Source: Zoroaster sp. YZ-2022
Lineage: Eukaryota; Echinodermata; Asteroidea; Forcipulatida; Zoroasteridae
DNA: 64,000 nt
Direction: 5' to 3'
Assembly: GCA_029582265.1 (NCBI GenBank)
Contig: CM055830.1
Coordinates: 22,552,163 to 22,616,162 of the forward strand
Below, one piece after another: positions 9,523-58,817 of this stretch. The notes under the pieces were generated by a model. The model saw nothing but the letters and a program-made list of their open reading frames with translations. It was not told the DNA's origin and did not search any database. The translations under genes were made by a program, and so were the position numbers. Numbering within the stretch: the first letter of the stretch is position 1; the number at the start of each line of letters is the position of its first letter.

Positions 9523-12190
9523 AAGAATTAGCTGTTTGCAAAATGCTTACCAACCTACATGTAAAGGACCTGTAGTATAAATAGAGAATTAGCTGTGGCA
9601 AACTGCTTACCAACCTAAAGGACCTGTAGTATAAATAGAGAATTAGCTGTGGCAAACTGCTTACCAACCTAAAGGACCTGTAGTATAAATAGAGAATTAG
9701 CTGTTGCAAAATGCTTACCAACCTAAAGGACCTGTAGTATAAATAGAGAATTAGCTGTTGCAAAATGCTTACCAACCTAAAGGACCTGTAGTATAAATAG
9801 AGAATTAGCTGTTGCAAACTGCTTACCAACCTAAAGGACCTGTAGTATAAATAGAGAATTAGCTGTTGCAAACTGCTTGCCAACCTAAAGGACCTGTAGT
9901 ATAAATAGAGAATTAGCTGTTGCAAAATGCTTACCAACCTAAAGGACCTGTAGTATAAATAGAGAATTAGCTGTTGCAAACTGCTTACCAACCTAAAGGA
10001 CCTGTAGTATAAATAGAGAATTAGCTGTTGCAAACTGCTTGCCAACCTAAAGGACCTGTAGTATAAATAGAGAATTAGCTGTTGCAAACTGCTTGCCAAC
10101 CTAAAGGACCTGTAGTATAAATAGAGAATTAGCTGTTGCAAAATGCTTACCAACCTAAAGGACCTGTAGTATAAATAGAGAATTAGCTGTTGCAAACTGC
10201 TTACCAACTTAAAGGACCTGTAGTATAAATAGAGAATTAGCTGTTGCAAAATGCTTACCAACCTAAAGGACCTGTAGTATAAATAGAGAATTAGCTGTTG
10301 CAAAATGCTTACCAACCTAAAGGACCTGTAGTATAAATAGAGAATTAGCTGTTGCAAACTGCTTACCAACCTAAAGGACCTGTAGTATAAATAGAGAATT
10401 AGCTGTTGCAAAATGCTTACCAACCTAAAGGACCTGTAGTATAAATAGAGAATTAGCTGTTGCAAACTGCTTACCAACCTAAAGGACCTGTAGTATAAAT
10501 AGAGAATTAGCTGTTGCAAAATGCTTACCAACCTAAAGGACCTGTAGTATAAATAGAGAATTAGCTGTTGCAAAATGCTTACCAACCTAAAGGACCTGTA
10601 GTATAAATAGAGAATTAGCTGTTGCAAACTGCTTACCAACTTAAAGGACCTGTAGTATAAATAGAGAATTAGCTGTTGCAAAATGCTTACCAACCTAAAG
10701 GACCTGTAGTATAAATAGAGAATTAGCTGTTGCAAAATGCTTACCAACCTAAAGGACCTGTAGTATAAATAGAGAATTAGCTGTTGCAAACTGCTTACCA
10801 ACCTAAAGGACCTGTAGTATAAATAGAGAATTAGCTGTTGCAAAATGCTTACCAACCTAAAGGACCTGTAGTATAAATAGAGAATTAGCTGTTGCAAAAT
10901 GCTTACCAACCTAAAGGACCTGTAGTATAAATAGAGAATTAGCTGTTGCAAAATGCTTACCAACTTAAAGGACCTGTAGTATAAATAGAGAATTAGCTGT
11001 GGCAAACTGCTTACCAACCTAAAGGACCTGTAGTATAAATAGAGAATTAGCTGTGGCAAACTGCTTACAAACCTAAAGGACCTGTAGTATAAATAGAGAA
11101 TTAGCTGTGGCAAACTGCTTACCAACCTAAAGGACCTGTAGTATAAATAGAGAATTAGCTGTTGCAAAATGCTTACCAACCTAAAGGACCTGTAGTATAA
11201 ATAGAGAATTAGCTGTGGCAAAATGCTTAGGCCTACCAACCTAAAGGACCTGTAGTATAAATAGAGAATTAGCTGTTGCAAACTGCTTACCAACCTAAAG
11301 GACCTGTAGTATAAATAGAGAATTAGCTGTTGCAAACTGCTTACCAACCTAAAGGACCTGTAGTATAAATAGAGAATTAGCTGTTGCAAACTGCTTACCA
11401 ACCTAAAGGACCTGTAGTATAAATAGAGAATTAGCTGTTGCAAAATGCTTACCAACCTAAAGGACCTGTAGTATAAATAGAGAATTAGCTGTTGCAAAAT
11501 GCTTACCAACCTAAAGGACCTGTAGTATAAATAGAGAATTAGCTGTTGCAAAATGCTTACCAACCTAAAGGACCTGTAGTATAAATAGAGAATTAGCTGT
11601 TTGCAAACTGCTTACCAACCTAAAGGACCTGTAGTATAAATAGAGAATTAGCTGTTGCAAAATGCTTACCAACCTAAAGGACCTGTAGTATAAATAGAGA
11701 ATTAGCTGTTGCAAAATGCTTACCAACCTAAAGGACCTGTAGTATAAATAGAGAATTAGCTGTGGCAAACTGCTTACCAATCTAAAGGACCTGTAGTATA
11801 AATAGAGAATTAGCTGTTGCAAACTGCTTACCAACCTAAAGGACCTGTAGTATAAATAGAGAATTAGCTGTTGCAAACTGCTTACCAACCTAAAGGACCT
11901 GTAGTATAAATAGAGAATTAGCTGTTGCAAACTGCTTACCAACCTAAAGGACCTGTAGTATAAATAGAGAATTAGCTGTTGCAAACTGCTTACCAACCTA
12001 AAGGACCTGTAGTATAAATAGAGAATTAGCTGTTGCAAACTGCTTACCAACCTAAAGGACCTGTAGTATAAATAGAGAATTAGCTGTTGCAAACTGCTTA
12101 CCAACCTAAAGGACCTGTAGTATAAATAGAGAATTAGCTGTTGCAAAATGCTTACCAACCTAAAGGACCTGTACCGGGGTAGTATAAATG
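9523..12190. repeat. 54-bp minisatellite, about 49 units
   Basis: The unit runs AAAGGACCTGTAGTATAAAT, AGAGAATTAGCTGTTGCAAA, CTGCTTACCAACCT. The length is a multiple of three and the minus strand has no stop in one frame, so it reads as an 18-residue repeat LVSSLQQLILYLYYRSFR for 744 codons (9329-11563) and, after a one-base gain near 11600, another 227 codons (to 12248). Units alternate TTGC/TGGC, ACTGC/ATGC and TTACC/TTGCC variants. Two carry exact 6-bp insertions: TACATGTA at 9556-9563 and TAGGCCTA at 11228-11235. The ORF is best read as a by-product of the repeat. Confidence 0.9.
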
Positions 12191-12193
12191 CAA

Positions 12194-13503
12194 AATAATG
12201 AATACGGTTCGAACCTAGCAGGTTCTTTCTTGAGAAAGGTAAGGCCAAAAACCATTATTTTGCAGAGTTTCAGTTGACAGTTAGCAAATTAACCATTAAC
12301 TCCCAGCACTAATCCAAAATACATTTACAATAGACCATATCAAACACAATTTTTATTATTTTATTTTTTTTTAAACATGATTATGAAACATCTGACTTGT
12401 TGGGAGTGAAAAATTTGTAGCAAACAGTTCAAGTCAATGACAGTACAATTGCTACGCTAATTAGCATGTCCTGCATTATACAATGTCCCCACAATAACGT
12501 GTTGTGATCAGTTGATTGCCAATGTATAGATTTTCCCTATAAGGTTAAGCTGTTACTACAAGTACACATATGATCTGACACAGCAACCTAAATACATAAA
12601 GCCTGGACTGTCTATGCATGATGAAAGGAGGATGGATGATGACATTGGCCCCCTCTGGCCATCAGCCCATGGATGACTTATTCCAACTCTATATAACACC
12701 AGACGTCAGGAAGCCTAGACTAATGTCAACTTCTCGCTCTCGGGTTGGCTTTTCCAGATATCTTAACACCTCATGATAATGATTTTTTTTGGTCTTAGCC
12801 CAAGGGTGTTACCTTCATTAGTTTGCCAATAATTCCCCAGATCACTGCAATATAAACAGCCTCCACTAATTCCTTTTCGTAAGAAACACCTGGGAACAAC
12901 AACCTACATGTACAAATTAGATATCAACAAACCCAGATGTACAAGGATTAAGAAGCATATTCATGTATAAACATGTTTTAGGGGTTGTTTTATTTTGGAC
13001 TGCCCAAGGTTGTTTTTCATGTCAGAATGTAATTCTACAGAAGGTTAACTGATCATGAGCACAGTCTTAAAGTACGCTTACTTGGTAAGATACTAATGGA
13101 TCTACCAAACAATTCTGATTCCATCTGACATGTTGTCATTTTCAAAAAAAATGCGGAATACATACATACAGGCAATTGTTTTATTTTGTTTATATTTAAA
13201 TGAAACAATAAAATAAAAACATTGAAGTATGGGATGCATTTTCCAACATTTTAATGTTGTCCTCTTTCGGCTGCTCCCGTTAGGGGTGATACATCTGTAT
13301 CTGCATTCCTTTGAAATTATTATTTTTATTAATTGTTCAGATTAAAACATAAATTGTTGAAAATAACGGGTGAAATAATAAAAACATAGGCCATATCTTT
13401 AACAGGAATGAAATGCCCAATAGGGAAACAGACATGCATCAAATTACTGTTGAACCATCTTCAGATATAATACAATGTGAACACAATGGCAATATTCTGT
13501 TAA
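12194..13503. other. Unassigned stretch
   Basis: AT-rich, with no gene or RNA recognised. Positions 13256-13293 repeat the last ~38 bp of the SINE/LINE tail seen at 24362 (GTCCTCTTTCGGCTGCTCCC). The rest shows nothing. Confidence 0.5.
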
Positions 13504-13779
13504 CCCTAACCCCCTAGGTATTCTGGCTAGGAACCTTCCTGAATCCTCCTGAATCCTCCAAAATCCATCAATGCACTTTTGGAAACATCAATGCCCTTAT
13601 CTTCAAAATGCACCATGCATTTTCGTTGATCTTTCATATTCAGCACTTATGGCCTGTGCTTCTTGCCAGGTAGTAATTTTGCCCCATTTGAAGAGGTGAA
13701 AGTACCAGTTTCCAACAGCTCTGAATTTTTCCAAAAAAGTGCCCCTTGGAGGATTTTGATGGATTTGGGGCGGTTAGGG
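13504..13779. mobile_element. TTAA MITE with telomere-like ends, copy 1
   Basis: A 276-bp element starting CCCTAACCCCCTAGG and ending GGCGGTTAGGG, flanked by TTAA at 13500-13503 and 13780-13783. With the TTAA, the ends read TTAACCCTAACCCC and GGTTAGGGTTAA, which contain telomere-type TTAGGG steps. Copies lie at 33356-33606, 60269-60531 and, more diverged, 52318-52548. A duplicated CCTGAATCCT step is specific to this copy. Non-coding. Confidence 0.8.
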
Positions 13780-17043: not shown

Positions 17044-19130
17044 CAGAGATGCCACTGCGTTGGCTAAAAAAAAAACTGAAATTTATTATCATTGTGACAA
17101 ATAGCCGCGGAGCGAACGTCGCAAGCGTAACGTGTATCGAGAGAAAATCGCCGTTGTCGTCACGCTCCTCTACCCATGACCAGTTCCATTTGTTTTTAAC
17201 CTTCGCCTCAATTGTCTTCAAACTGTCCGTTCTTTGCAGAACCTTGAATTTTTCCATCTTTGAATTGTCCCGAAGAGAATGGCCTCACTCTTCCTCCATG
17301 CTTTGACAGAATTTACGAAAACCAAGTTTCAATGCGTATCGCTTCAGCATACCGTAATTTCCTGCGTATAAGACGCTCGGTGTATAAGGCGCATTACCCC
17401 AGAATCGGGGGAATGTGATTAAAGTGTCAACGTACAAGGCGCACCGCCGTATAAGGCGCACCATGACCGCTGACACAGAGGCCAGCTGGGTGCCACTCAT
17501 TGTCGGTACATCGCCACAAAGGGGTCATTGTGTTGCGCCACTCCCTGAACTGATGGTCTGTGTGCCACAATAAAAACTATTCAATTGGACGAAGGCCGAG
17601 TTTAGTAGAAAATGTTCCCAGAAAAATGTAGCCCTGTCGATCCAATTGTATTGATTTTTTAATCGGTTAGCTAACGTGCGTGGGGCTAGAGATCGGATTG
17701 GTTTCAGAAGTATAATTCTCAATATAGTTTGTTTCAAATGAACTATAGCCATCAACAAACACAAATTCGTATAATTATCGTGTCATGTGCAATGCATCGG
17801 AAACGATGTTATTGGTATACACGTTAAATTATTTGCTTACCTCCATGCTTGCATAAACAAGCCATTTTCGCGACGTGATCCCGCGAGTCGCATCCCGCTC
17901 ATTTCATTCATAAAAAGTGGCAACCATAAATTGTCCAATAAGCATGCAATACGTACGGACGTGCTTCTCTCCATTGCTCAGCCCGGATTCCCCCTTAATA
18001 TGCAACTTTCCCAACAAACCTTGTTCCCAACGTTTACCTGAAGGTCTCGAATGTGGATTCAAGACCCATGGGGACGAGCTTGGTCATGACCTGCAGGGAC
18101 ACGTGGACGATGATGACATCATAATTCCAGTGCGGTCCAATCAGGTGCCGGGAAAGACTGGCCACACACTGCCCGATGGCTTATTTTTTTTCCGTACCAC
18201 ACGCTGAGTTGAATGCATGATAAGTGTGTGCCAACAACAGTTGTGGTACGCCTTTGTCGGTAAGCACGGCCACGCAGTAAGGTGAATTGTATGCATGATT
18301 GGCATGTGCCAACAACAGTTGTGGTACGGCTTTGTCGGAAAGCAAGGCAACGCAATAAGGTGAATTGAATGCATGATACATGTGCGCCAACAAAGGTTGT
18401 TATGGGCATTGTCGGAAACCACAGCACGGCCGTAAAGGTGAATGAATGCATGAAAATCTTGAGCTAACGACCTTCATTGGAAAACACGGCCGCTTTGTTA
18501 GGTTGAGGTCCACCGAAAGTTACACAAGCGGTAATCATCACTTTGATCTCAAGCGACACCAGATAAGGCGCACCGTTAGATAAGACGCAGTGACGTTTTC
18601 GTACCTTTGAAAGTCAGATAAGCCGCGTCTTATACGCAGGAAATTACGGTACATGTACATGTGTTAGACAACTCGTCCTGCCTAGTCTCAGATGGCCATG
18701 TGTGACAAGGACTTGGTTGGTACCCGGCGAGTAATATAGGAGTATTTGATATGAAGACTGCAATCGGAAACCACCGACGCATGAAATCATAGACTTGATT
18801 TCAAGGCTGTGTGTGATAACTTCGCTTACCACTACAGCATACATACGAAGACGATCCAGGTTCATCGTGCGCTCGTTACATACATGTACATACACGTAGT
18901 CGGCAGGCGTTCGCGGGATAAGCCTCGAAATCAAGGCTACTGAAATTACTGCTGCGCTGCTGTCGTACGTCGAGCTCTCGAGACGCGAAAAAAAAAAGAA
19001 AAAAAAAATTCCGTTTCCTTTTTTTTCCTCCGGTCTTTTTATGAATGGACGGCCGGAAAACAAACGGATTTTGGGGAGATTTTTTTAAAAAAACGGAATT
19101 CCGGTTTAAACCGGAAAAGTGGCATCTCTG
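17044..19130. mobile_element. Second-level insertion with CAGAGATGCCACT ends
   Basis: Terminal inverted repeats CAGAGATGCCACT and AGTGGCATCTCTG, flanked by GGGTAC on both sides (17038-17043 and 19131-19136). The CAGAG ends are hAT-like. A minus-strand stretch near 17120-17190 reads NWSWVEERDDNGDFLS, which resembles the N-terminal lead-in of some invertebrate zinc-finger transposases, but too little remains to be sure. The element is itself interrupted by the TA element at 17352-18649. Confidence 0.65.
17352..18649. mobile_element. Third-level insertion: TA-flanked element with 25-bp TIRs
   Basis: Ends CCGTAATTTCCTGCGTATAA and its complement TTATACGCAGGAAATTACGG give TIRs of about 25 bp, flanked by TA dinucleotides (17350-17351 and 18650-18651). 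Subterminal sequence repeats the theme GTATAAGGCGCA. The TA duplication indicates the Tc1/mariner/pogo group. Three ~78-bp imperfect tandem units occupy 18214-18450, with GCATGAT, CCAACAACAGTTGTGG and AAGGTGAATTG landmarks. No transposase ORF is recognisable, so it is non-autonomous or decayed. Confidence 0.7.
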
Positions 19131-19851
19131 GGGTACGCGTAAACAATTTTGTAAAAACACGTAAATACACCTGAATGTATACATAACAGCAAAAGAAACG
19201 TCACCCCTAAAAATATTTATTATTTTCATTTTATAATTAATATAATTTGTTTAATGAAGAATATTATGAGTATGGAGTGTAACACGAACACAATGTGGCA
19301 AATTTGGTTGACCTGGCAGCCAATCATCCCACAACATTGTATATTTATTATGTTTAATAATATAATTACTTAACAAAATTTACGGGGTGACGTTTCTTTT
19401 GCTGTTATGTATATAAAGTACATCAGGAACACAAGTTTCTCTTATTTTATTAGTCAACAAATGTGGACTTAACGTAATAATTTCCCATTTCTATATTAAA
19501 AATGACTCATAGCATCCCTATTCCCCACACACATACAAATAATTCATGTGTCCAACACTCGCACTTATCCAATAACTGCGAACAATATAGGCACAAAAAC
19601 CAACTTGTGATACTGGCATGACGGCGGTCAACTCAAAACAAACTAGATACATCAAACAAAAGCCGGCAAGTATGTGAAAGGTTGTTGGTAAATGTTACTT
19701 CTAAAGCCTTTTATCTGAGTTATCTAAATTTGGTTTTTAAAAAAATTCAGAGGCTTCCATTTGTGTGGATTAAAATCAATGTTCAGTCAGAATTTTAAGA
19801 AGTTGTTTACGGGTAATTGGAACGGAAAAATGGAACCTGGTCATGACAGTT

Positions 19852-29549: not shown

Positions 29550-29871
29550 CCCTCCTACTACTACAAGGGTCAAAATCAGTCAAAATGTTGATATACTTCC
29601 CAAGGTACATGTATATCTAGTGCACTTAAAAGTCAAACACTGTCAAACCTTACGTGTAGTAAGTACATTTGTACATTTACAGGTCAAAATGAGTCGACCG
29701 TTTTTGACTGGTAAAAGCATTGTCTTATTTTGTTCAGGGTGGTCAAAATGACAGCAAAAACCAGTCAAAAATGTCCCTGTGTACACATATGGGTCAACAG
29801 TCAAAACTGGCAGTTGACTGGTTTTAATCTCTGTAGCAACTTCCCACTAAAGTGCAGCAATATTAGGAGGG
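29550..29871. mobile_element. TTAA MITE, CCCTCCTA family, full copy
   Basis: A 322-bp element, CCCTCCTACTAC on the left and ATATTAGGAGGG on the right, flanked by TTAA (29546-29549 and 29872-29875). The interior is rich in GTCAAAATGAGTCGACC-type and CCAGTCAAAA steps. A diverged copy lies at 60763-61066, a 33-bp derivative at 7771-7803, and one end near 1152. TACATGTA at 29606-29613 replaces the TA of the other copy. Confidence 0.8.
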
Positions 29872-30864: not shown

Positions 30865-31080
30865 TTAATATACAGAGGCAGGAAATTATTACAGTAAGTC
30901 CACATTTATTATGACTGTAATAAAACAAGAAAACTTGTGCTCATATTGGTTATTTTATACATTCAGGAATATTTATGTTTTTTTTACAAAATTGTTTACG
31001 GGTACCCGGGTATCTGAAGAGTTCCAATTTCGGGTATCCGTTTCCCAAAAGAACCGAAAACGCACAGCCTTAACTTACAT

Positions 31081-31838: not shown

Positions 31839-32373
31839 TAATTATAGGCCAGTTGTCATCTTGAAAAATGTAAATGCTCACAATTTCAATCATACTTGCT
31901 TGTTGTGAAGCTGTTGACTGTATTAAACATTCCTTGAAATATTTCTGTCTCATGTGCTACAACGGGAAGGTACTTCATTGGTACTGTTGGAAAAACTGTT
32001 TCGATGGGAAGGCCTACTTTCTTTGAATCAGGATATATATTAAACAACCGATCCGTTTCAGCTCAAAGTTTAAAAGTCATGAGAAAAGGGCTAAAATGCA
32101 TCATTTTTACCAAAGACCTTTGAAGTAAAGAGTTGCCTAATTCAGCAACTTTCTGTAAATGTGCATATAGGGCCTATAGTTTTTCTGTATTTTCTTTACA
32201 ACAAGCATGCACCAGTAGTGTTTCACATCAAATATCATTTCCAACATACATACATGTACATGTAGATGTAGATGAAGGACAGATAGCTCACAAAAAGCAC
32301 AGTGAGACTGCATCTTTAACTGCAGGTTTATGCAAACATTTGAACCTGCCTTTTGAACTTAAAAAATAACAAA

Positions 32374-33028
32374 TGTTTAAAGGAAAGGTACAGTACATGT
32401 ACATGGGCAATTCCATGAAAAATAAGACATGAGGGTCAATTTTTTAAAACCATGTATGCAGTAAGTGTTGTATATCATAAATGTAGATTATCTGAACTTT
32501 GTGGAGTGTCGTGGCCAAGTGGTCTACATGTAGCTTACCGGACTCAAGTTCTGGTGTTAGCAGCAGAATGTGGGTTCGAATCCCGGCCGTGACACTTGTG
32601 TCCTTGAGCAAGACACTTAACCATAATTGCTTCTCTCCACCCAGGGGTTAAATGGGTACCTGTGAGGGCAGAGTTGGTTGATTAGCCCTATATGCGCTGT
32701 AATGGTAGCAATTGAGCTGTATACTCCCCAGGGAGCTGAGATGGTTTCAGGAATGATTTATGAGCCTTATGAGCCTTATGAGCCTTATGAGCAGGGGTAA
32801 TGATATAATGCGCCTTGAGCACCACTTAGTTGGTGGATACGTGTGCTATATAAGTCCACACATTATTATTATTATTATTATTATTAATGAGAGCACATCA
32901 GACAGAATGATTTTTTTTCAGGATTATTGGCGACTTTACCAACCTCACTCATCGAATTACTAATCAGATAATAATTTGGTGATTTTGTGATCATGTTATT
33001 ACCAATGTTGTACCTAATTCCCTTTTAA
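32374..33028. mobile_element. Possible GGTACAACATTGGT MITE hosting a SINE
   Basis: Left TTTAAAGGAAAGGTACAG and right TACCAATGTTGTACCTAATT then CCCTTTTAA resemble the ends of this MITE family. The SINE at 32503-32885 lies between them, leaving about 270 bp of MITE, close to the family's usual size. The left end is weak. Confidence 0.35.
32503..32885 (+). mobile_element. SINE with tRNA-Leu(CAA)-like head, copy B
   Basis: Plus-strand copy with complete head, body and tail ending in (ATT)n. TACATGTA at 32525-32532 interrupts the D-arm region where copies at 26346-26715 and 51161-51510 have only TA. Three GAGCCTTAT steps are tandemly repeated near 32762-32790. Confidence 0.85.
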
Positions 33029-33355: not shown

Positions 33356-33606
33356 CCCTAACCCCCTAGGTATTCTGGCTAGGAACCTTCCTGAATCCTC
33401 CAAAATCCATCAATGCACTTTTGGAAATATGCCCTTAATTAGGCCTATCTTCAAAATGCACCATGCATTTTCGTTGATCTTTCAAATTCAGCACTTATGG
33501 CCTGTACTTCTTGCCAGGTAGTAATTTTGCCCCATTTGAAGAGGTGAAAGCACCAGTCCAAAAAAGTGCCCCTTGAAGGATATTGCAGGATTTGGGATGG
33601 TTAGGG
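33356..33606. mobile_element. TTAA MITE with telomere-like ends, copy 2
   Basis: A 251-bp copy of the 13504-13779 element, from CCCTAACCCCCTAGG to GGTTAGGG, with TTAA on the left and TTAT on the right. It carries a 10-bp insertion that creates TAATTAGGCCTA (33436-33447) where other copies have TA. Confidence 0.8.
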
Positions 33607-35619: not shown

Positions 35620-36255
35620 CCAGTTGACGTCGGGAATATTTATTTTTTTCCGGTCCCCCGTGAGGGTTTATTTTCAGTGAAAAATCTGAAAAAATTTCTA
35701 GCCATTAATAATTTATTTTGTCAATGAAACTAAGTTCGGACACCCAAATAAACACCTTTACTCATTGACATTTTGAGAATTAAATGGCTAGTTTTTTAAT
35801 TACGGTTGTGTTTGTTCAGCACACTTAAACTGTTGGCAAGCCCCGATACAACGGCCTATTAGTGACCAACGCCCGGTCGAAAAGACGGCATACCTGGAGA
35901 GAGATCGAATGCCTCGTAAACAATGGATATAAATCCCTCTTTACAAATCCATGGCTGGTACAATGTACGTCAAAGGAACAGGTCTTGGATAAAGGGATTA
36001 GGCAAAAATCAACAAAAAGAGTGAACACGTTCAGTATTTGCAGTGCATTTTGTCCGGGGTCACCGAACCGTGACCCCACGGACTCCGAGAAACGATTGCG
36101 TGTATACAAGTCAGCCGCCACGACGGCATGCCACGTGTGGCGTGTTGACAAGTCTCCCGGTGACACACACAAAAATCGGAATGCGTGTTTAGACGCTCTC
36201 CGATCCGCTGTCCAAAAAAAAATTGCGTGTATACACGGCCTCCGAAGCAAACTGG
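35620..36255. mobile_element. TTAA element, CCAGTTGACGTCGG ends, long copy 1
   Basis: A 636-bp element with CCAGTTGACGTCGG left and CCGAAGCAAACTGG right, flanked by TTAA (35616-35619 and 36256-36259). It is closely similar throughout to 40368-40995. Both contain long open stretches on each strand, but reading frames are not preserved by the differences between copies, so I treat them as non-coding. The 7-bp AATGTAC insertion near 35962 is absent from the other copy. Confidence 0.85.
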
Positions 36256-36670: not shown

Positions 36671-36866
36671 TATTATTATTATTATTATTTCGCATTAGCA
36701 CAGCATGAAAAGAAAGATCTTGTTTTCCTTTCTGCCGGTTACACCTTGAGTCAAGCTACATGTACGTCCCATAGCCTTAGATCTCGAGTGACTTTCGCAG
36801 AATCCTTGCTGTCCCTAAGAGTGCCGCCTTCTGTAGAATTCTACTCTAACAGATGTTCCTATCTCC
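36671..36866 (-). mobile_element. 3' end of a restriction-like-endonuclease LINE, 5'-truncated
   Basis: On the minus strand it matches 42588-42770 almost base for base: the last codons of the LINE protein (KAALLGTARI region), the 3' UTR GGTGTAACCGGCAGAAAGG, and the end CATGCTGTGCTAATGCG followed by ATT/AAT repeats. Its truncated 5' end at 36866 directly touches the A-rich tail of the Tx1-type LINE in the same orientation. It has TACATGTA at 36757-36764 where the other copy has TA. Confidence 0.8.
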
Positions 36867-37130: not shown

Positions 37131-40100
37131 TTACATAAAGGGAAAAATAATATCGTTTCCATTATAGTAGCACAGAGCTTTGTTTGTAGTAAATATTTTG
37201 GTGAAATCATTTGAGGATAACCTTTTGTTTTCGAGAACAATAATTCTTTTGAGATTCTTTTTGTACATGTTTAATAACACACTGTCTATAATTGGGGAAG
37301 TTTCATTTAAATTTTTACATCTTGTAACCCAAATGGTTCTATGTAATTTGGCAATTAAACACAAGGCGATAGCATCTATGTGTTTACCGTACCCCAAAAT
37401 TTTATTACTATCATTAAGGTAGAAATGTTTGTTACCCTTGTAATTGCGAAGAATATTTTCTATAAAAATCCAAACAAGCCAAGTGTTTCTACAGTAAATA
37501 AACAAATGTTCGATCGTTTCTTCCTCTTGCTTGCACATAGCACATTTGTTATCATTGGTGTTTTTCATTTTTTCCAAGATATCATTAGTAGGAAGTATTC
37601 GATGTCTTAAGCGAAACCAAAGATCTTTGTCTTCGTAGTCTATATTTGTGTTGACGGCTTTTTTCCAAATTTCTTTCCAATCAAGGCTATATTGGCTAAT
37701 ATTGAGCTTTTTTGGCCAAATGTTTTCTGCAGCAGGTGGGATGAATTTTTTCCGGATTATACTCTGATAAATTTGTTTGACTGAAATATCAGATATAGAA
37801 ACACTTTCTTGATCGTCTAACATTAAGAATAACATATTACTAACATGATTGGCCGGTCCTTCTCTTGTATCACTGAGTAAAACACTGCTAACATGTTTTT
37901 TTAAACCCGCCATAATTTTCCCAGCGTTAATAACTTTAATATTACATTTAACAGCTAATTCTTGACGTGTTAAGAAAACGCCATCTCTGACCACATGTTT
38001 TAGTGCCAACATGCCGCAGCATTTTAATACCTTGCTATCAATCATTTTTTCTTTGTCGGTAATAACTGAATTATTGCATAAAAGTATCTCAAGTGCATCG
38101 CTGTTACAACTAACATTGAGTTTCATTATACCATCCGCATTTTTAAAAGCTTTAATCAAATCTCTATAAAAACTGGGCATCTTTGCTCCCATCAGTTTAG
38201 GATTGTTAAAAACAAACCAACCAAGATTCTGATCATTATTTCCATTTTGGATCCAAAAATCAAACAAATATTTCCATTTGCCTTGAGTTTTGGTATATTT
38301 TTTCAGCCAGTTTAATTTTAAAGCATCTATTTTACATGTAATGTTTATTAATCCAGTTCCCCCTAACTCTGGAGGGCCCCTTATAGTGTCTCTTTTGATT
38401 TTGTCTTGCTTAGATGACCAATACAATTTCATGATGGCTTTATCCATTTCTTTAGTCATGTCTTTTGGACAAGAAAGAACTGAACCATAACAGGCTAAAC
38501 TGCCTCAGATAAGGCTATTAACTAACACTGCTTTTCCTTTCATTGTCAAAGACCTCCCTTTCCACCTATTCAAAATATTTTTCATTTTGTTTATTCTCTC
38601 TGCCCAGTTTTCTTCCGGTTTAATCTCATTTCCAAAATATATTCCAAGAATTTGTTATTGTTCCACTTGAAGTGTCCTGGACTATCTTTTCTGTTTTTCC
38701 ATGCTCCCAACCATAAGCCTTGGGTTTTCCGATTGTTGATTTTCGAGCCAGATCCTTCGCTGTACGTATAATTTTTTTTGTCTGAATTAGTGAAATCTTT
38801 ATTGTCGGTAACAAAAATGCTAGTATCGTCAGCATGTTGAACAATTTTAAAATTCACATTTTTATTCGGGAGTTCAACTCCTTTGATACAACTGTCACTT
38901 CTTGTAAGATTGGCGAGGCCTTCTACACATATTGAATATAAAAGAGGGGATAATGGATATCCTTGTCTTATACCTCTTGTCGCTTGAAAAGGCTTAGTAA
39001 GGAAATTATTGACATTAATTGTAACCATAGGATTGCTGTATAAAATTTGTATCCATTGTACTAATAAACCAGACGGAACGCCCATTTTATTCATCATAGC
39101 GTACATATAGCGCCATTCTATACGATCAAAAGCTTTTTCTTGATCAATGCTTATTATAGCCACTTCTTTATTGTAAAGGTTCACATAATCAATAACGTCT
39201 CTTAAAATCATCAAGTTTTCTTGAATATTCCTGCCCTGCACTCCACATGTTTGATCTTCATCTATGACAGACGGCATCAATTTGCGCAAACATTTGGTTA
39301 GAACTTTAGATATAATTTTATAATCAACATTGAGAAAACTAATAGGTCTCCAATTTTTTAAATCACTTCTTTCTCCTCTATTCTTAAATAATAATCTGAT
39401 AAGAGCCCTGTTCATTGAGTCTGGTAACCTACGCTTTTGTGACAATATTCTACCAAATCAACACAATCATTCATCAAAGATACCAAAAGGTCAAATAAAA
39501 TTCAACAGTTAGACCATCCAGTCCTGGGGCTTTGTCTTTCGCCATATCATTGAGTGCTTGATGCATTTCAAATTCTTTTATATCTTTTTCCATATCTTGA
39601 ATAATGTCTTCTTCAAAATGAAAAGTATTAACTGTACCCAAAATGTTTTTCAAATGAAAATTGTTAATTCCTTTCGAGGAAAACAGGTTTTTATAGTAGG
39701 TGCTAATACATGCTCTAACATATATATGGGCTCATTCAATACTCGACCTTTTGTGTCTTCCAAATGTTTAATAAGATTGTTTTTCCATTGTTGCTTCTCT
39801 GCAGCAAAACAGTATTTAGCTCTTTCCCATTTGCAAGTTTTGTAAAGTTTAATATTTTTCTCTATTTCTTCTAGCTCAGTCATATTATTGTCAGAAGGAT
39901 GACTAATAATATAATCGTACCTTTTTTTAAAAATTCTTCTTCAGTGTTTTTCTTTGTACCTTTTCTCACCTTCATAATCCTTAATAATTTCTTTTAGCCT
40001 ATTTTTTCCAATATCCCACCAAACAAATAAACAATCATATCGGTATTTTTGGGTAATCCAGAATTTCCAAAACCACTCAACTCTAGTTTTACATTGGTTG

Positions 40101-41417
40101 TCTTTAAGAAGTTCATTATTACAAATCCATCTTCCTTTTCCCGTGGTAATGGTTTGGTAATCAAAACGGACAATTATTGTACTGTGATCTGACAGACCTG
40201 AAGAATCAATAGATATTTCTTTTAGTTGGTATCCGAGTGTTTCTGACACTAGGACATAATCAATTCTACTCGGTCTTTTAATTACTTTGTGGTAAAATGT
40301 GTATCCTGGTTTATTCTCTATATATCTCCATGTATCAATGAGTTCATTTTCCTGTATCATATTAAAACCAGTTGACGTCGGGAATATTTATTTTTTCCGG
40401 TCCCCCGTGCGGGTTTATTTTCAGTGAAAAATCTGAAAAAATTTCTAGCCATTAATCATTTTTTTTGTCAATGAAACTAAGTTCGGACAACCAAATAAAC
40501 ACCTTTACTCAATGACATTTCGAGAATTAAATGGCTAGTTTTTTAATTACGGTTGTGTTTGTTCAGCATAATTAGACCGTTGGCAAGCTCCGATGCAACG
40601 GCCTATTAGCGACCAGCGCCTGGTCGAAAAGACGGCATACCTGGAGAGAGATCGAATGCCTCGTAAACAATGGATATAAATCCGTCTTTACAAATGCTTG
40701 GCTGGTACGTCAAAGGAACAGGTCTTGGATAAAAGGATTAGGCAAAAATCAACAAAAAGAGTGAACTCGTTCAGTATTTGCAGTGCATTTTGTCCGAGGC
40801 CACCGAACCGTGACCCCATGGACTCCGAGAAACGATTGCATGTATACACGTCAGCCGCCACGACGGCACGTCACGTGTGGCGTGTTGACAAGTCTCCCGG
40901 TGACACACACAAAAATCGGAATGCGTGTTTAGACGCTCTCCGATTCGCTGTACAAAAAAAAAATGCGTGTATACACGGCATCCGAAGCGAACTGGTTAAA
41001 AAGAGAAGTTTTGATTTGATCGTAAATATTTGTTGAATCTAATTGACAGTTAAGATCACCACCAATAATGCAATTCCCAAATTCCACAAAAAATTGCTTC
41101 CGCAATAGAAGCACCATTTGGCGCATACAATGAGACTAAATTAACAGTGACACCATCAATTTCTATATCCCCCCTAAACCCATCGTCCATGTGAATCACT
41201 CCGAGGGTTAACAAGATTAAAAACACTTTTCTTTGAAATTAAAATAGCAACGCCACAACTGTTAGCCTTTCCATGACTGAAAAAAATTTGCCCACCCCAC
41301 TGTTTGCGCCATAAGGTTTCATCTTTTTCTTCTTCCTTTCAAAATATTCAAAAACCATGTCCCTTTTTTGGCTATTTTTAAGCCGTTTACATTTAATGTG
41401 GCTATAGTGTACGCCAT
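37131..41417 (-). pseudogene. LINE ORF2: APE endonuclease, reverse transcriptase, zinc knuckle (disrupted)
   Basis: Starts MAYTIATLNVNGLKNSQKRD, the classical APE start with the LNVNG asparagine. The next part lacks the catalytic LQETH segment, then continues WGGQIFFSHGKANSCGVAI, IIGGDLNCQLDS (about 41060) and, after the inserted element, SRIDYVLVSE and LSDHSTIIVRF. The RT (39445-38591) has LKNWRPISFLNVDYK, ISIDQEKAFDR, GIRQGYPLSPLLY and HADD where Y/FADD is normal. The C-terminal part (38459-37131) has ELGGTGLINI, RLRHRILPTNDIL and CAMCKQEEETIEHLFIYC. Without the insertion the span is about 3.65 kb, near a normal ORF2. It is dead through missing motifs and frameshifts. Confidence 0.85.
40368..40995. 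mobile_element. TTAA element, CCAGTTGACGTCGG ends, long copy 2 (inside the LINE)
   Basis: A 628-bp near-copy of 35620-36255. The flanks read TTAAAA on both sides (40362-40367 and 40996-41001), so the duplication is TTAA or extends to six bases. It interrupts the endonuclease part of the LINE ORF2 and is therefore younger than the LINE. Confidence 0.85.
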
Positions 41418-46822: not shown

Positions 46823-47713
46823 AGCCCTTTTCACACTACAGAGCCAATTCCCGGGAAAAAAATTCCCGGGAAATTCCCGGTAGTTTTTAACCCCACCAAC
46901 ACCCCAGCGACCGTTCACACTGTACCTATCTGGTCGCTCCCGGGAACATTATTTCCCGGGAATATGCACGGTCGTTTCACACTCGCGATCAAATCCCGGG
47001 AAATGCGCTAACTGTAATCGGCCCATACGGAAGTTGAAAATGTTGTGGGCGGAAGTCCAATCCCAGAATGCCACGCGCTCAAGCAACCGCCAGCGCGGTG
47101 ACGGCCGGGTTGTTGTTGTGACTGTTTCCCATGCATCGCGTAGTGTCCATCACATCATTTTCGCATGCTATTATTATTATATTACCAATATTTTTGTATT
47201 TTACGGAGGAAAAACCATGCGGACATTATAAATACACATAAATGATACAGATGCTTAACATGGCCTTGTCCGCGACAATTCTTTTATTCAATTCTAAAAC
47301 CATTTATTTGGTCACATTCTAGAAAACTAAATATATTGTGTTATTTACAGATGTAGACATTTATATTTTAAGAAGGAAAGTTTCAAAGGTACTGAAATAC
47401 AACACTGGATATTAGCGCGCGAGCTATTTGGCGCGCTATTTGTGACCTCGCTGACCTTTCAAGACATGTTGACGTCCCAACATCCACGACGCGAAAGTGG
47501 GGTAAGTTAAACCCGCTTTCGTTTCACACTAGTTGCTATTTCCCGGGAAAAACACTATTCCCGGGAAAAACTCGCTTACCCCTACTCCCGAGCAGGATTA
47601 ATTATTTCCCGGGAATAAGCTACTTCCCGGGAATTTCCTGGGGTTAACTTTTGAAGTGTGAACAGATTTCCCGGGAATTTCCCGGGAAATACATCTAGTG
47701 TGAAAGGGGCTAT
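46823..47713. mobile_element. MITE with AGCCCTTTTCACACT ends and CCCGGG palindromes
   Basis: Ends AGCCCTTTTCACACT and AGTGTGAAAGGGGCT are inverted repeats; the flanks TTA and ATA are only a weak match for a 3-bp duplication. Both subterminal zones are packed with TTCCCGGGAA palindromes (46850-47000 and 47540-47690), giving nested fold-back potential. It is related by its ends to 33726-34548. No transposase. It stops about 75 bp from the KCNH exon. Confidence 0.7.
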
Positions 47714-48692: not shown

Positions 48693-48905
48693 GAAACTGA
48701 CCTGAAATATTATATAAACGAAAAGCGAGCAAAGAAAAATTGGCTGATGCCGGACTCGAACCCGCGACCTCTTGAATACCATACGAGCGCTCTACCAACT
48801 GAGCTAACCAGCCCCTATGTTGGTGGGCAGTCCACTTATGCCAATTATCTATTGCTCTATGGGGCCAGGTCTGAGGCCAAACCATATATGCCGAGTAGCC
48901 AGGGA
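48692..48905 (-). mobile_element. tRNA-like SINE, third family, copy 1
   Basis: On the minus strand: GGCTGGTTAGCTCAGTTGG (box A region), GTAGAGCGCTCGTATGG, box B GGGTTCGAGTCC, and an ATCAGCC acceptor partner complementary to GGCTGGT. Downstream come AATTTTTCTTTGCTCGCTTT and ATATTTCAGGTCAGTTTC. The anticodon arm pairs poorly, so this is a tRNA-derived repeat rather than a working tRNA gene. A second copy follows at 49010-49225. Confidence 0.7.
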
Positions 48906-49009
48906 TCAAGCCCCGGTCAGATGCAAACAACCCGGGTAACGGCAGTAGTGGGGATCACACAACGGGATACAAGCCTTTTACGTGGTTGTACACAGAATAA
49001 GTATAGATA

Positions 49010-49225
49010 GGAAGAAACTGACCTGAAATATTATATAAATGAAAAGCGAGCAAAGAAAAATTGGCTGATGCCAGACTCGAACCCGCAACCTCTCGAATAC
49101 CGTACGAGCGCTCTACCAACTGAGCTAACCAGCCCCTATGTTGGTGGGCGGTCCACTTATGCCAATTATCTATTGCTCTATGGGGCCAGGTCAGAGGCCA
49201 AACCATATATGCTGAGTATTTCAAC
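49010..49225 (-). mobile_element. tRNA-like SINE, third family, copy 2
   Basis: About 95 percent like 48692-48905 by eye, including about 90 bp beyond the tRNA-like part (CAATTATCTATTGCTCTATG, AAACCATATATGC). Its anticodon arm CTCGTACGGTATTCGAG is better paired, with a T-T mismatch next to a loop that would show GGT; position 33 is C instead of T. The pair looks like a local direct duplication. Confidence 0.7.
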
Positions 49226-53961: not shown

Positions 53962-54569
53962 ATGCGTGCGTGCGTGCTGTGTGTGTACGTATGTATGTAT
54001 CTTGAGGAATTAAGATTTACATAAGAACTGAGCTGGTAGTGAGACAAGGATGAGGATAGACCTATAAAGGGGCTCGGCTTCAAATATATTGTGCCCCTTT
54101 TCAGATGAATAAAAAAAAATGTTTTTACACTGTTGTCATTATTGTCGTATAATGTCATCCTTTGTTAACTTCAACTACAATCTATCTTTGAACCTGCCTG
54201 ATTCGCACAGAGGGAGAAACAAGGGGGTGGGGCTTGACGAGCCCCCCTTCTATTTTTCATTTTGTTTTAATTTAAATAAATACAAAATATATGGCCAACA
54301 AATATGTTGTGCCTTGATTTCAGTATTCCTTTTAAAAAAATCTGAAAGTAGGGGTGGGTGGGGGTGGGTTGTGATATGCTTGTTTGCTGACCCAGCAAAA
54401 TTGAGAGGAGGGACATACCCCCCTTAGGCCTATATTACCCAGATCCAGTACTGCGAGAGTGATATGTGAGCTCCCTCTAGGGCGGAAATCCTTGTGTGCC
54501 ATCCTCCTCACCAGAACAATCTATGTATTCTTTTTTTAGGGGAAGGGGGGTGCACAATCATTTGTACAA
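52549..54569. other. Unassigned stretch with microsatellites
   Basis: Holds a TATC repeat (52956-52977), a TGCG repeat (about 53932-53977) and GT/GTAT steps after it, plus a C run near 52658. No gene is recognised. Confidence 0.5.
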
Positions 54570-55791
54570 TAAGCCTTATCGGAATTGTGCGTGCAATGAA
54601 TTATGGGACTTGGGTTTTGGAAAAAAGTTGTAAACAAATGCAGACGTGTGTGCACAAAGTCAATGGAGGCCCAAGGTAGTCGGCCAGAAAATTATTAAGA
54701 ATTAGTTACATTACATGCAGAACATTTGTATAATTAAACAAAAACATTTTTGTATTCCCATAAACCACGCAAATGGAGGAATTCTCAGATGATTTCTGGA
54801 TGCAATTTTCCAGTCATGAACAAATGATGTACTTTTAGGCAAACTCGATCACTACTAACGGCCGAGAAGCTCTTCAATTCAGATTTCGGAGCATATTTTC
54901 TTTTAGAAATATTCTCCCCATTGCCAAAAAATATAAATTACAATAAATTAAAGGATGGTAAAAAGGAGAAAACACTTGCCTTTTTTATAAGTTCTTGATA
55001 TTCAATTTATTGGCGTTTGACAAATGCTATAATTAATATAATATTTCACCCTAGGGGATTAAAACAGGCTCATTTCAGATCAGATGGGTGGCGATCCGTG
55101 GCTCCAATATCTACGATCAGGTAACATGCGGTAATATCAGACGGTCCCAAAATAATATATTAATAAGATAATAGTTTCTTGTCTCAACTAGCACTTTGTT
55201 TTATTTTAATTATTTTTTTTAATGGTTTGATTTTTGGGTGGCAGCAATTTTGTATTTATTTATTTATTTATTTATTTAAAAAAAATGTTTTTAGTCAGGC
55301 GTGCCGGTGATATGTACTACCTTGACTGACATCACCAATTTATAATAGTTATTATTTTAATCTATTGTGGGTTTGACCTCGGTTTGACCAGTGCTTAATT
55401 TTTTTTTTTTTTTTTTTTAAATACGTTGACATTATCTGCAATATCCCCCTTTTTAGAAGAAAAAAATCCTTAAAAGACTAAAATAGGCCTATGGTCGTCG
55501 CACCCGGAGATCAGAAATCAGCTGAGAATTCCTCCATTTGCGTAGCTTCCGGGGGGATAAAAATCAATTTTTTTCTTAATTATAAAAATGTTCTGTTTAT
55601 AAATTAACTGATTTCTTAATAATTTTCTCCATAATTTTGCTATAAAACGTTAAATCTTCCAACTTCTTGCCGATCACCTTTCTCCTCCGTTGACTTTGTG
55701 CACAAACATGTGCGTTTAGACAAAAGTTGACAACTTTTTTCCCAAAACCCAACTCCATAATTCATTGCACGCACAATTCCGATAAGGCTTA
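54570..55791. mobile_element. Foldback element with long inverted arms
   Basis: The left arm 54570-54680 (TAAGCCTTATCGGAATTGTG, CGTGCAATGAATTATGG, TGCACAAAGTCAA) and right arm 55680-55791 are inverted copies over about 110 bp. Further inside, CAAATGGAGGAATTCTCAG (about 54771) pairs with CTGAGAATTCCTCCATTTG (about 55523). The whole 1.2 kb could thus fold on itself. No target duplication longer than two bases is evident and no ORF is present. Confidence 0.7.
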
Positions 55792-57686
55792 TAAGATGTA
55801 TAGTTTTATATTATTTACAAAGCTAGAGACTATCTCTAGACATTATGCACCCTTCTCAGCTAATACATGTACATGTAATCATTATGACACATTTATACAG
55901 TGTATAATGCACCTGCACAGGTACAGTGTGAAGTACATCACAGGGGCAAAGTTTCAGGTAGTCAATGTGCATATAAATTACGTGCATATCCAAGTGCATT
56001 CATGATACTTTTAAAGGAGAAGGTACAACATTCGTGACAACCTGATCACACAAATTACAAAATTTGTATCCGAAAATTAACTTGATTTGAAGATGGAATT
56101 GTTTAGCTACCAATCTTACTAAAAAGTTATTGTCTGAAAAGCTCTCATTTCAGAGAAAACACAAAATATACACATTTTCAAAACATTTTACAGACAGCTC
56201 TATTAGGCTTGGGCGGTTTTTCGGTAAAACTGAGTAGTCAGTTTTTAAACCGACACTGAACTGAGAGATTTTTACTAAACCGAAATACCGCCAAATTCGG
56301 TTTTCAAAAAATAAAAGCGCGGTTTTATAAAATCATCCATTTTTGAGCCCTAGAGTGGGGCAATTTATCCCGACAGTCAAAGCTTACTTTTACTGGTACT
56401 CATTGTAACCTTGTTCTTTGGCGATGATTATTAAAGCAATGTATTCCCGTGATCATAAGGATCCCCCCCCCCGATGGATGAATAGTTATTTAAAATCCTA
56501 TTTTTTAGCACCCGTTTGGCCCGCAACATATCTCAGTTCGGCACAGTCAACACATTACTATACAGTCCATTTTCGTAGTTTACAGATCACCTACGTTCGT
56601 ACAGGGAAGGTATAACAATGAATATGCAACATAGTGAACATATTCAAGAGCAATCAAACAGCCAATAAGAACAATATATATATTTGCTACCTATGAAAAT
56701 CTATCCAATCACGATGCACAGAAACAGGCACATGATCCTCAAACACTACCTGTGCACATTGACCACACAGCCATCAGCACTACTCGGTCTCACCGTGGTC
56801 GCACGTGGTATGTACATGTACATGTAAGTATATGTGTATAAATGTACATGTACATGTACCGTAGTGTATTGCGGTCTCGCAGTGAATTCCCTTTCAATTT
56901 TTTTTTCGTTATGATAAATCTTTTGAGTTGAATTTCTGTAAAACCACACTTTTCTCATAGGTTTAACACTCAAAGACACTCAAAATTTGTATGTCTCTCT
57001 TAACCCATTGACTTTGTGCAGTGCACTCAAATACACGCAAACATAATGGCTGTGTGATAGGAGGTCAAACCCAAAGACACTCAAAATTTGTATGTAACTC
57101 CCAACCCATTGACTTTGTGCAGTGCACTCAAGGAGGTCAAACCAAAACCAAGTACATACACAGCTCTGTGTGACTCTGTGGTTTGACCTATTGGCAACGC
57201 AACCAAAAATACTCAAGTGAGTGTCTGTGGGTGCCGTGCTGACTGGGCCAAATTTCAGCCTGGGCATAGGAGGGTTAAGCTGAAACTTTCACAGGACGGT
57301 TGTTAAAAGTATGTTTTTTTGATTCCAAGAAAGTAAGCATACTCATTGAAGCAGTTCTGCCAACATTAATTAAATGCTTTATACCTTCTCATTAACGTAC
57401 AGCAATTGCAAGGAATCTTTTCTTTAAAACACTCCCTGGTGGACGGGAAAAAATTTACCAGTGATCAATGCAAATGGAGTTCTCATTTACACATGCATGA
57501 ATCAGAGAGAGATTCTTTTCTCTATGCATGAATCATTTAAAGTCTCAACTTAAAGTTCATCGGTATTGGGAATATCAATTTGCAATTATAATCTTGTTAT
57601 TTCAAGGAATTTCAAGGAATTCTAGATAACTGAGAAGGTGTCTGAAAGAGGTGATTGACATTACAACTGTTCCATTAAAGATGCAG
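55792..57686. other. Mostly unassigned; worn transposon ends and a direct repeat
   Basis: Near 56010, TTTTAAAGGAGAAGGTACAA resembles the left end of the GGTACAACATTGGT MITE. Near 56212, GGGCGGTTTTTCGGTAAAAC with AACCGAAATACCGCC downstream looks like a worn hAT terminus. 56971-57031 and 57072-57133 are direct repeats sharing GACACTCAAAATTTGTATGT and CCCATTGACTTTGTGCAGTG. Confidence 0.4.
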
Positions 57687-57819
57687 TCTCTATTCGTGCT
57701 ATTTCGACCATCTATTCATGCTATTTCCACCCTCCATTCATGCTATTTCCACCCTCTATTCATGGTATTTCGACCATCTATTCATACTTTTTCGACCCTC
57801 TATTCATGCTACTATGACA
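57687..57819 (+). repeat. 22-bp minisatellite, array 1
   Basis: About six imperfect units of CCCTCTATTCATGCTATTTC plus two bases. The same repeat reappears at 58542-58817. Confidence 0.85.
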
Positions 57820-58541
57820 TTGCAATAAGTAAGCACGGGCTCAGTGACAAACTTTAATGAGCTATATGACATCATCACTCATTTACATAAGCTAATTACA
57901 GCACGCAGTGGTTTGGGAAGTAATGAATATTCATTTAATGATCACGCGGTGAACCGGTGACCTCGCGTCGATTAGCCAATCACCATGCAGTACTGCGAAG
58001 ATTGCACGCGGCGCACAACTGTGTCATTAGAATGCAGTCGATCAACTTCGGTGGTCTGTGAATATTACATAGGTACATACAGTAAAATTATGTAAATTTC
58101 ATTCAAACTTTGTTTGAATATTCATTATGGTCTACAGCAACTAACTGTGCAGTTACTTTATGAATGAACTACATGAGTGAACAGCAAATAGACCGCCCAC
58201 TGGAGGCCACGTAGGGAGCGTCTTACCGCACCGCGAACACGTGTATTGTTAATGTTCGTGTGCGACGAGGTCAGTGTGCTGAAGTGCAAAAGTTGTCGTT
58301 TTGAATTCGACGGGTACATATGTACAAATTTTCCAAAAGCAGAAACATTGGGTTTCTACAGCAAGTAGACAAACTAAATTTGCATGGGGTAGTTAATATG
58401 TCCAGTACCTGTTTCTTTTGGGAGCATGAGTTTCATAAAATAGAGGGTATATGCATTTGGTCTATACTTGTCTGTGTGCGTAATGCAGTGTGTATTTCAA
58501 CGCTGGTGTTTGTATGAGAGATGTCCGTTTACTTATTGTAA

Positions 58542-58817
58542 TGACCCTCTATTCAAGTTATTTAGACCCTCTATTCATGATACTAAGACCCTCTATCCAT
58601 GCTATTTTGACCCTCTAGGCCTATTCATGCTATTTTGACCATCTATTCCTGCTATTTTGACCATATATTCCTGCTATTTTGACTACCTATTCATGCTATT
58701 TCTACCATCTATTCATGCTATTTCTACCATCTATTCATGCTTTTTTGACCCTCTATTCATGCTATTTTTACCCACTATTCATGCTATTTCGACCCTCTAT
58801 TCATGATATTGCAACCC
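58542..58817 (+). repeat. 22-bp minisatellite, array 2
   Basis: About twelve imperfect units of the array 1 motif, 720 bp downstream and in the same orientation. One unit carries an exact 6-bp insertion making TAGGCCTA at 58616-58623. The DNA between the arrays has no repeat units and no recognised gene. Confidence 0.85.

What the first reader, a model, noticed from the sequence alone, without database searches (positions are those of the whole stretch)
9556..58623. Exact TA to TACATGTA and TA to TAGGCCTA insertions between repeat copies look like Tc1/mariner excision footprints
Seen directly: when paralogous repeats are aligned by eye, one copy often has a precise 6-bp gain at a TA. TACATGTA versus TA: 9556 (54-bp minisatellite), 8134 (repeat R1), 32525 (tRNA-Leu SINE), 36757 (LINE 3' end), 29606 (CCCTCCTA MITE). 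TAGGCCTA versus TA: 11228 (54-bp minisatellite), 58616 (22-bp minisatellite), and 33440-33447 (telomere-like MITE, with an extra AATT step). Near 7160 both occur together. Related longer forms are TACATGTACAGTGTAC versus TAC near 545 and TACAATGTAC versus TAC near 35957. Known: Tc1/mariner transposases insert at TA and cut a few bases inside the ends, leaving TA plus end bases plus TA; ends CA...TG would give TACATGTA and ends GG...CC would give TAGGCCTA. Inference: the strong excess of these palindromes in this genome (I count about 14 TAGGCCTA here against roughly one expected) is a fossil record of mass excision by two transposon families.
Basis: partly seen in the sequence, partly recalled or inferred. 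Interest (0 to 1): 0.9.

Follow-up and report, generated by a model that had tools for sequence, protein, structure and literature searches.

The report
Transposon excision scars litter a genome
Two exact eight-letter palindromes occur far more often than expected in this genome and look like the small scars left when jumping DNA cuts itself out, so a genome may keep a record of departed mobile elements; the source of one of the two scars is still unknown.

Summary
The window has 38 TACATGTA (2.9 expected) and 14 TAGGCCTA (0.5 expected); the 1.0-Gb genome has 393,335 and 88,276. In paralog alignments, 12 of 44 TACATGTA and 3 of 8 TAGGCCTA sites have a copy with exactly TA instead, against 7 of 742 for all other TA-N4-TA words: precise 6-bp gains at TA. 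Resident Tc1-type families B and C have TA duplications and CA..TG ends. Their insertion sites and TACATGTA flanks share a bias (A at -3, purine at -1), though not the same site spectrum, and family A is opposite. Best reading: TACATGTA is the excision scar of Tc1-like elements, two end bases kept from each side; TAGGCCTA is probably the same kind of scar. I found no GG..CC element: family D has TAGG ends beside its TA duplication, and a second candidate lies inside a larger repeat. Only family B's ends were counted genome-wide as CA..TG residents (27), far below the scars. Excision was not observed; eight paper searches listed no account of this word excess.

The parts
9556..9563 (.). TACATGTA scar (TA to TACATGTA) in one unit of the 54-bp minisatellite
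   Evidence: 45 paralog alignments show exactly TA, 2 another indel
11228..11235 (.). TAGGCCTA scar (TA to TAGGCCTA) in one unit of the 54-bp minisatellite
   Evidence: 44 paralog alignments show exactly TA, 4 another indel
29606..29613 (.). TACATGTA scar in the CCCTCCTA repeat
   Evidence: 5 paralog alignments empty, 2 with the word, 1 other indel, 1 substituted
32525..32532 (.). TACATGTA scar in the tRNA-like repeat
   Evidence: 12 of 12 paralog alignments empty
36757..36764 (.).
   Evidence: 1 paralog alignment, empty
58616..58623 (.). TAGGCCTA scar in the 22-bp minisatellite
   Evidence: 3 alignments empty, 1 other indel
33436..33447 (.). composite 10-bp gain TA to TAATTAGGCCTA
   Evidence: 3 of 3 alignments 'other indel'
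540..555 (.). composite gain TACATGTACAGTGTAC against TAC: two adjacent TA-bounded CA..TG cores
   Evidence: 4 'other indel' and 1 substituted
35958..35968 (.). 7-bp gain, TA to TACAATGTA (core CA-A-TG), inside GTACAATGTAC
7165..7178 (.). TACATGTAGGCCTA: both words sharing one TA; no empty paralog examined
   Evidence: Genome-wide the two words also lie side by side (TAGGCCTAN{0,5}TACATGTA 447 + 460 against 3 + 1 for the reversed control), a pattern that does not include the shared-TA form
8134..8141 (.). TACATGTA; claimed gain against the inverted copy near 7061 not secure
   Evidence: edge of homology
62032..62038 (.). 5-bp gain TA to TAGGCTA, possibly a one-base-shorter relative of TAGGCCTA
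32251..32264 (.). TACATGTACATGTA double core
55864..55877 (.). TACATGTACATGTA double core
56813..56826 (.). TACATGTACATGTA double core
56845..56858 (.). TACATGTACATGTA double core
19180..19411 (.). resident 232-bp inverted-repeat element, TA-CATAACAG..CTGTTATG-TA, with an empty paralogous site near 30959
   Evidence: exact boundary ambiguous because the site is TATA

Best explanation
TACATGTA (and more tentatively TAGGCCTA) are excision scars of cut-and-paste elements that insert at TA and duplicate it. The transposase cuts each end so that two end bases stay on each flank (CA and TG, or GG and CC); the two 2-base overhangs cannot pair with each other, and end joining keeps both, turning TA into TA-CATG-TA or TA-GGCC-TA (+6 bp). 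Shown: specific 6-bp gains at TA, resident Tc1-type families with TA duplications and CA..TG ends, a target bias in the same direction, an excess of CANTG cores and of chained cores. Inferred: the cut positions, the both-sides-kept repair, and that relatives of families B and C made the scars. Not shown: the GG..CC source.
For: Specificity: precise empty paralogs for 12 of 44 CATG and 3 of 8 GGCC sites against 7 of 742 others (p 7.6e-12 and 9.3e-5). In window plus L001-L028 (about 288 kb), 14 of 62 non-tandem 6-bp indels have a TA repeat; 9 of these 14 are CATG (7) or GGCC (2). Elements: families B (L033) and C (L041, L044) end TA-CACTG, A (L029, L036) TA-CAGTT; B and C carry HTH_Tnp_Tc3_2 and DDE_3; B matches the Sleeping Beauty structure 5cr4 at 1.6e-33. 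Target: purine at -1 in 149 of 186 scar flanks and 32 of 34 B+C flanks against 54% background; A at -3 in 90 of 186 and 29 of 34 against 32%; T at -1 in 18 of 186 and 0 of 34 against 32%. TAGGCCTA flanks: T at -1 in 4 of 46, p 3.7e-4; A at -3 not significant, p 0.21. Junction variety: TACANTGTA 30 against 8.8. Chaining: the core after a scar is CATG in 42 of 342 against 300 of 40,558 after other TA; a family C copy lies directly beside a scar (L041).
Against: No GG..CC family found, and in the 200-kb sample TAGGCCTA is no more enriched (8.1-fold) than TAGGGCTA/TAGCCCTA (8.4-fold). The one CA..TG family counted genome-wide, B, has 27 exact ends next to 393,335 TACATGTA; A, C and related short repeats were not counted. 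The scar site spectrum is not that of B+C: ATA-TA is 20 of 34 B+C flanks but 18 of 186 scar flanks; G at -1 is 0.41 in scars against 0.26 in B+C; ATG-TA is not significantly enriched in scar flanks (11 of 186, p 0.1); family A is opposite (T at -1 in 9 of 10). A zebrafish Tc1-like element prefers ATATATAT (passages), again not the scar pattern. TACATA/TATGTA, which I take to be the +4 class that a 2026 paper calls typical (78%) of Tc1 in worm soma (passages; the equation is mine), show little excess (230 against 201). Scars are very unevenly spread (0 to 41 per 10 kb). One-letter neighbours of TACATGTA are barely in excess (272 against 242), so most scars would have to be young. L001-L008 were picked by a scar pattern and L029-L044 by transposase matches, so one search is not a random sample; double cores count twice and both ends of one insertion are not independent. 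Chained cores could also come from slippage.
Confidence: 0.72

Rival explanations
1. Direct micro-insertion: a TA-specific transposase or nuclease opens TA and end tips or fixed 4-base stretches are added without a full element ever having been inserted.
For: Scars far outnumber the one CA..TG family counted; no GG..CC element found; TA-repeat indels peak at 6 bp (14 of 62), with 5, 4 and 3 at 5, 8 and 10 bp; 8 of 17 at 11 bp, seven of these from one L002 array.
Against: Resident elements with matching CA..TG ends and a similar target bias exist; CANTG variants fit end joining of cut ends.
Confidence: 0.13
2. Hexamer microsatellite slippage of (TACATG)n produces the TACATGTA excess.
For: Arrays occur: 12 double, 1 triple, 1 quadruple of 116 in 200 kb; chaining after a scar.
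Against: 102 of 116 arrays are single; gains start from a bare TA with no neighbouring copy; 131 of 133 occurrences have distinct 16-nt flanks; it does not explain TAGGCCTA (no TAGGCCTAGGCCTA in the window, though two such words appear among the places listed).
Confidence: 0.06
3. The octamers are protein-binding sites kept by selection.
For: Few one-letter neighbours would also fit maintenance.
Against: They appear as precise 6-bp gains in single copies of minisatellites and dispersed repeats.
Confidence: 0.04
4. Word bias or assembly artefact without biology.
For: AT-rich genome with many enriched words, some not palindromic.
Against: Palindromes of the same letters are near expectation (TACTAGTA 2 against 2.8, TAGATCTA 0 against 1.6); precise empty paralogs.
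Confidence: 0.03

Closest known systems
Tc1 excision footprints (C. elegans)
   Same: Tc1-class element, end joining makes the somatic scar (PMC13148408, passages). TA target and CA/TG ends, and that TACATGTA itself is among recorded Tc1 footprints, are my recollection, not from a call.
   Different: The typical worm-soma scar is +4 bp (78%); here the excess is in a +6 form with both sides kept, in the assembled genome at about 390 per Mb.
Sleeping Beauty / ZB / Passer footprints
   Same: Tc1/mariner or pogo cut-and-paste, few bases left at the excision site (passages).
   Different: SB leaves 3-base overhangs, ZB footprints of 0-3 bp, Passer 0-4 bp; TACTGTA/TACAGTA is only 55 against 42.7 here.
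Mariner-like element footprints
   Different: No PF01359 match in this genome, but that search was uninformative.
Stowaway excision footprints in Triticeae (PMC1925063, search listing and start of abstract only)
   Same: Short scars after loss of a short DNA transposon.
   Different: Not read further; here the evidence is a genome-wide word excess.

Membership tests
Tc1/mariner excision footprint (TACATGTA) | TA present once in the empty site and on both sides of the scar | tested here: met
   12 of 44 sites with precise TA paralog, others 7 of 742
Tc1/mariner excision footprint (TACATGTA) | Scar letters equal the end bases of a resident TA-inserting element | tested here: met
   families A, B, C end TA-CA..TG-TA
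Tc1/mariner excision footprint (TACATGTA) | Flanks follow the target preference of the source element | tested here: inconclusive
   same direction as B+C at -3 and -1 but a different site spectrum; family A opposite
Tc1/mariner excision footprint (TACATGTA) | Excision of an element seen to leave the scar | not testable with these tools
   needs population or cell assays
Worm-type Tc1 footprint | Predominantly +4 scar (taken as TACATA/TATGTA) | tested here: not met
   230 against 201 expected, while TACATGTA is 133 against 8.2
Tc1/mariner excision footprint (TAGGCCTA) | Precise gain at TA | tested here: met
   3 of 8 sites with TA paralog against 7 of 742 others
Tc1/mariner excision footprint (TAGGCCTA) | Resident TA-inserting element with GG..CC ends | tested here: not met
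   family D is TA|TAGG in 18 of 20 ends read of 1,706 (four of the 20 share one flanking repeat); TAGGGATTTGCACAAT lies in a larger repeat. The search was not exhaustive; a source may be extinct or missed.
Tc1 family (elements B and C) | Tc1-type transposase, inverted ends, TA on both sides | tested here: met

The most novel reading that the evidence does not exclude
Excision scars form a self-seeding, genome-wide deposit: each scar recreates an acceptable landing site (CATG-TA-CATG fits the A-Y-R-TA preference), so elements return to old scars, scars chain and cluster, and a word covering roughly 0.2-0.3% of the genome grows with few resident elements. TAGGCCTA would be the signature of a transposon lineage known only from its scars. 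(Odds lowered from 0.3 to 0.25 on review, because ATG-TA flanks are not significantly enriched at isolated scars and slippage could also chain scars.)
Probability: 0.25. Interest if true: 0.82.

Novelty: new variant of a known kind. Interest (0 to 1): 0.64.

Why it matters
Cut-and-paste elements are usually counted by the copies that remain. If inherited excision leaves a recognisable word, the number of departures can be counted and dated, extinct families can be inferred from scars alone, and the repair pathway that joins germline breaks can be read from the scar shape. The +6, both-sides-kept form would say something about end joining in this germline.

Tried and rejected
Family D (TAGGTTTTCYCGG, 870 + 836 places) as source of TAGGCCTA: rejected; 18 of the 20 ends read are TA|TAGG and TATAGGCCTATA was not seen in window plus 20 loci.

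TAGGGATTTGCACAAT (23 + 20 places) as a GG-ended family: rejected; in 20 places read plus L027 the flanks are shared in a few groups, so the repeat does not end at this TA.

TAGGGCTGTGCG boundaries: resemble hAT ends (recalled resemblance), not followed.

PF01359 search: no match, but its controls rang nowhere, so it says nothing about absence. PF03184 (pogo type) was not searched.

Scans for TA-bounded inverted repeats: TA 25 and AT 21 pairs; TA 66 and AT 138. They do not by themselves show an excess of TA elements. No convincing inverted ends for L030, L037, L038, L040; L034 reads TATAAACCCC.

Clustering of scars within 150 bp: of 9 records tested, L020 p 0.004, L026 0.046, L027 0.051, the others 0.099 to 1.

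Genome-wide counts of TACCGGTA, TACTAGTA and TACANTGTA were asked for but did not complete.

Odds changed on review: best explanation 0.74 to 0.72 and TAGGCCTA 0.65 to 0.6, because TAGGGCTA/TAGCCCTA is as enriched as TAGGCCTA in the 200-kb sample; novel case 0.3 to 0.25 (see there); rivals micro-insertion, slippage and artefact up by 0.01 each for the same reasons.
Full report
What was checked. The window has 38 TACATGTA and 14 TAGGCCTA against about 2.9 and 0.5 expected (order-2 Markov). The window is a piece of an unnamed 1,001,958,528-base genome in 616 contigs. Genome-wide TACATGTA occurs 393,335 times (reversed control ATGTACAT 190,587, itself raised by chained scars) and TAGGCCTA 88,276 times (control ATCCGGAT 8,687). 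Some TAGGCCTA places repeat at about 110-base spacing (listed places), so that count overstates events. In 20 spread 10-kb loci TACATGTA is 133 against 8.1 and TAGGCCTA 9 against 1.1. Of 16 palindromic cores CATG (16.5-fold), TATA (10.9, simple repeat) and GGCC (8.1) lead, then GCGC (4 against 0.76). Several non-palindromic words are also enriched: ATAA/TTAT 15.3-fold, GGGC/GCCC 8.4, CACG/CGTG 4.4, GGGT/ACCC 4.3. The sample holds more TACATGTA (665 per Mb) and fewer TAGGCCTA (45 per Mb) than the genome mean (393 and 88).

Gains at TA. Self-alignment of the window gave 8 distinct 6-bp events, 6 of them TA to TACATGTA or TA to TAGGCCTA. In window plus L001-L028, 676 non-tandem indels of 2-60 bp included 62 of 6 bp; 14 had a TA repeat, of which 7 were CATG, 2 GGCC and 5 other. 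The strictest test took every TA-N4-TA with an aligned paralog in window plus L001-L044 (329,571 bases): a precise TA paralog exists for 12 of 44 CATG, 3 of 8 GGCC and 7 of 742 other sites (p 7.6e-12, 9.3e-5). In the 54-bp minisatellite (48.9 copies) each word is aligned with TA in 45 and 44 paralog alignments, so these are gains. The case at 8134 is at the edge of homology and not secure. L001-L008 were chosen by a scar pattern and L029-L044 by transposase matches, and chained words count more than once.

Shape of the scars. The 9-letter relatives TACANTGTA are 30 against 8.8. Directly after a scar the next TA-bounded core is CATG in 42 of 342 cases against 300 of 40,558 after other TA, and a 5-base CA..TG core in 12 of 342 against 58 of 40,558; L017 7034-7075 reads CAATG, CATG, CAATTG, CAATTG, CATTG after successive TAs. 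Slippage could also chain cores. TACATA/TATGTA is 230 against 201 and TACTGTA/TACAGTA 55 against 42.7: little excess. Two 2-base 3' overhangs CA and CA cannot pair; keeping both gives CATG, and GG with GG gives GGCC. This chemistry is inferred. Passages seen give a 5' break two or three bases inside mariner-like elements (PMC2642840), 3-base overhangs for SB (PMC7827188), footprints of 2-4 bp for Tc1/mariner (PMC7913693) and +4 as the typical (78%) worm-soma Tc1 scar (PMC13148408).

Candidate sources. A DDE_3 search scored 150 of 1,709 first-look candidates, all 150 listed as matches. Sixteen of these were fetched: A (L029, L036: TA-CAGTTTTTC), B (L033: TA-CACTGCTCAAAA), C (L041, L044: TA-CACTGA(A/G)CA), D (L031, L035, L042, L043, one end of L039, and L032 by a hit just outside it: TA-TAGGTTTTC), L034 (TATAAACCCC), and four without clear ends. 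B and C have HTH_Tnp_Tc3_2 and DDE_3; for A and D the only transposase model matched was DDE_3. Family B has 27 exact ends in the genome. A repeat whose end resembles B (7 ends) mostly starts TACTACTC after TA, so its end bases are not clearly CA. A 232-base element with CA..TG ends lies in the window at 19180-19411 with an empty paralog.

Target preference. In 186 flanks of isolated TACATGTA (20 loci, words next to another CATG left out), purine at -1 is 80% (background 54%), T at -1 10% (32%), A at -3 48% (32%); in 34 B+C insertion flanks 94%, 0% and 85%; A-Y-R is 27% and 82% against 10%. Direction agrees; the spectrum does not (ATA-TA 59% in B+C, 10% in scars; ATG-TA 21% and 6%, the latter not significant), and family A is opposite (T at -1 in 9 of 10). 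A published Tc1-like element prefers ATATATAT (PMC7913693, passages). TAGGCCTA flanks (46, window plus 20 loci): T at -1 4 of 46 (p 3.7e-4), purine 35 of 46 (p 0.003), A at -3 19 of 46 (p 0.21).

The GG..CC problem. Family D looked right but carries TA outside TAGG in 18 of 20 ends read, four of which share one flanking repeat. TAGGGATTTGCACAAT is inside a larger repeat. So TAGGCCTA behaves like a scar but has no known source here. A 5-bp gain TAGGCTA (window 62032) may be a shorter relative.

Age and spread. One-letter neighbours of TACATGTA are 272 against 242 expected, beside 169 perfect words against 15.9 (window without two arrays, plus 20 loci): if neutral, most scars are young (a crude 2-3% substitutions per site, inference). 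For TAGGCCTA the neighbours are 84 against 51, with TAGCCCTA 24 against 3.3. Scars per 10 kb range from 0 to 41 (mean 6.65, variance 92). Density is 705 per Mb in sequence unique within the sample and 524 in repeated sequence.

Literature. Full-text searches for the two words and for footprints, palindromes and genome-wide scars listed no paper that, from title and abstract start, describes this word excess as excision scars; most subscription papers are not held. Plasterk 1991 on Tc1 footprints was not held.

Verdict. The word excess and the gains are real. Excision scars of Tc1-like elements explain TACATGTA best (about 0.8); for TAGGCCTA the same mechanism is likely (about 0.6) with an unknown source.

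Noticed in passing
L031, L032, L035, L039, L042, L043, L012; pattern TAGGTTTTCYCGG: A DDE_3 family with TAGG ends next to its TA duplication, 1,706 exact ends genome-wide, open frames of 364-404 aa in the six transposase loci read.
   Followed up: partly
L017: 41 TACATGTA in 10 kb, with a chain of CAATG, CATG, CAATTG, CAATTG, CATTG cores after successive TAs at 7034-7075.
   Followed up: partly
window, L001-L028: AT-bounded inverted-repeat pairs (138, mostly TG or GG starts) outnumber TA-bounded ones (66); possibly array-driven.
   Followed up: no
window 17350-18651: 1.3-kb element with perfect ends TA-CCGTAATTTCCTGCGTATAAG; its right side lies beside TACATGTACATG.
   Followed up: partly
window 46858-47700: Cluster of TTTCCCGGGAA palindromes: all 10 places found among the loci held then.
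   Followed up: no
window 37131-40387 (-): LINE-like reverse-transcriptase frames, by reading the translations; not searched.
   Followed up: no
window 48741-49134: Two tRNA-Thr-like genes (ARAGORN; Rfam tRNA 52 and 48 bits).
   Followed up: no
20 spread loci: TACACGTA/TACGTGTA 24 against 5.4 expected; possibly mutated scars or a repeat family.
   Followed up: no
20 spread loci: TAGGGCTA/TAGCCCTA 21 against 2.45 expected, unexplained.
   Followed up: no
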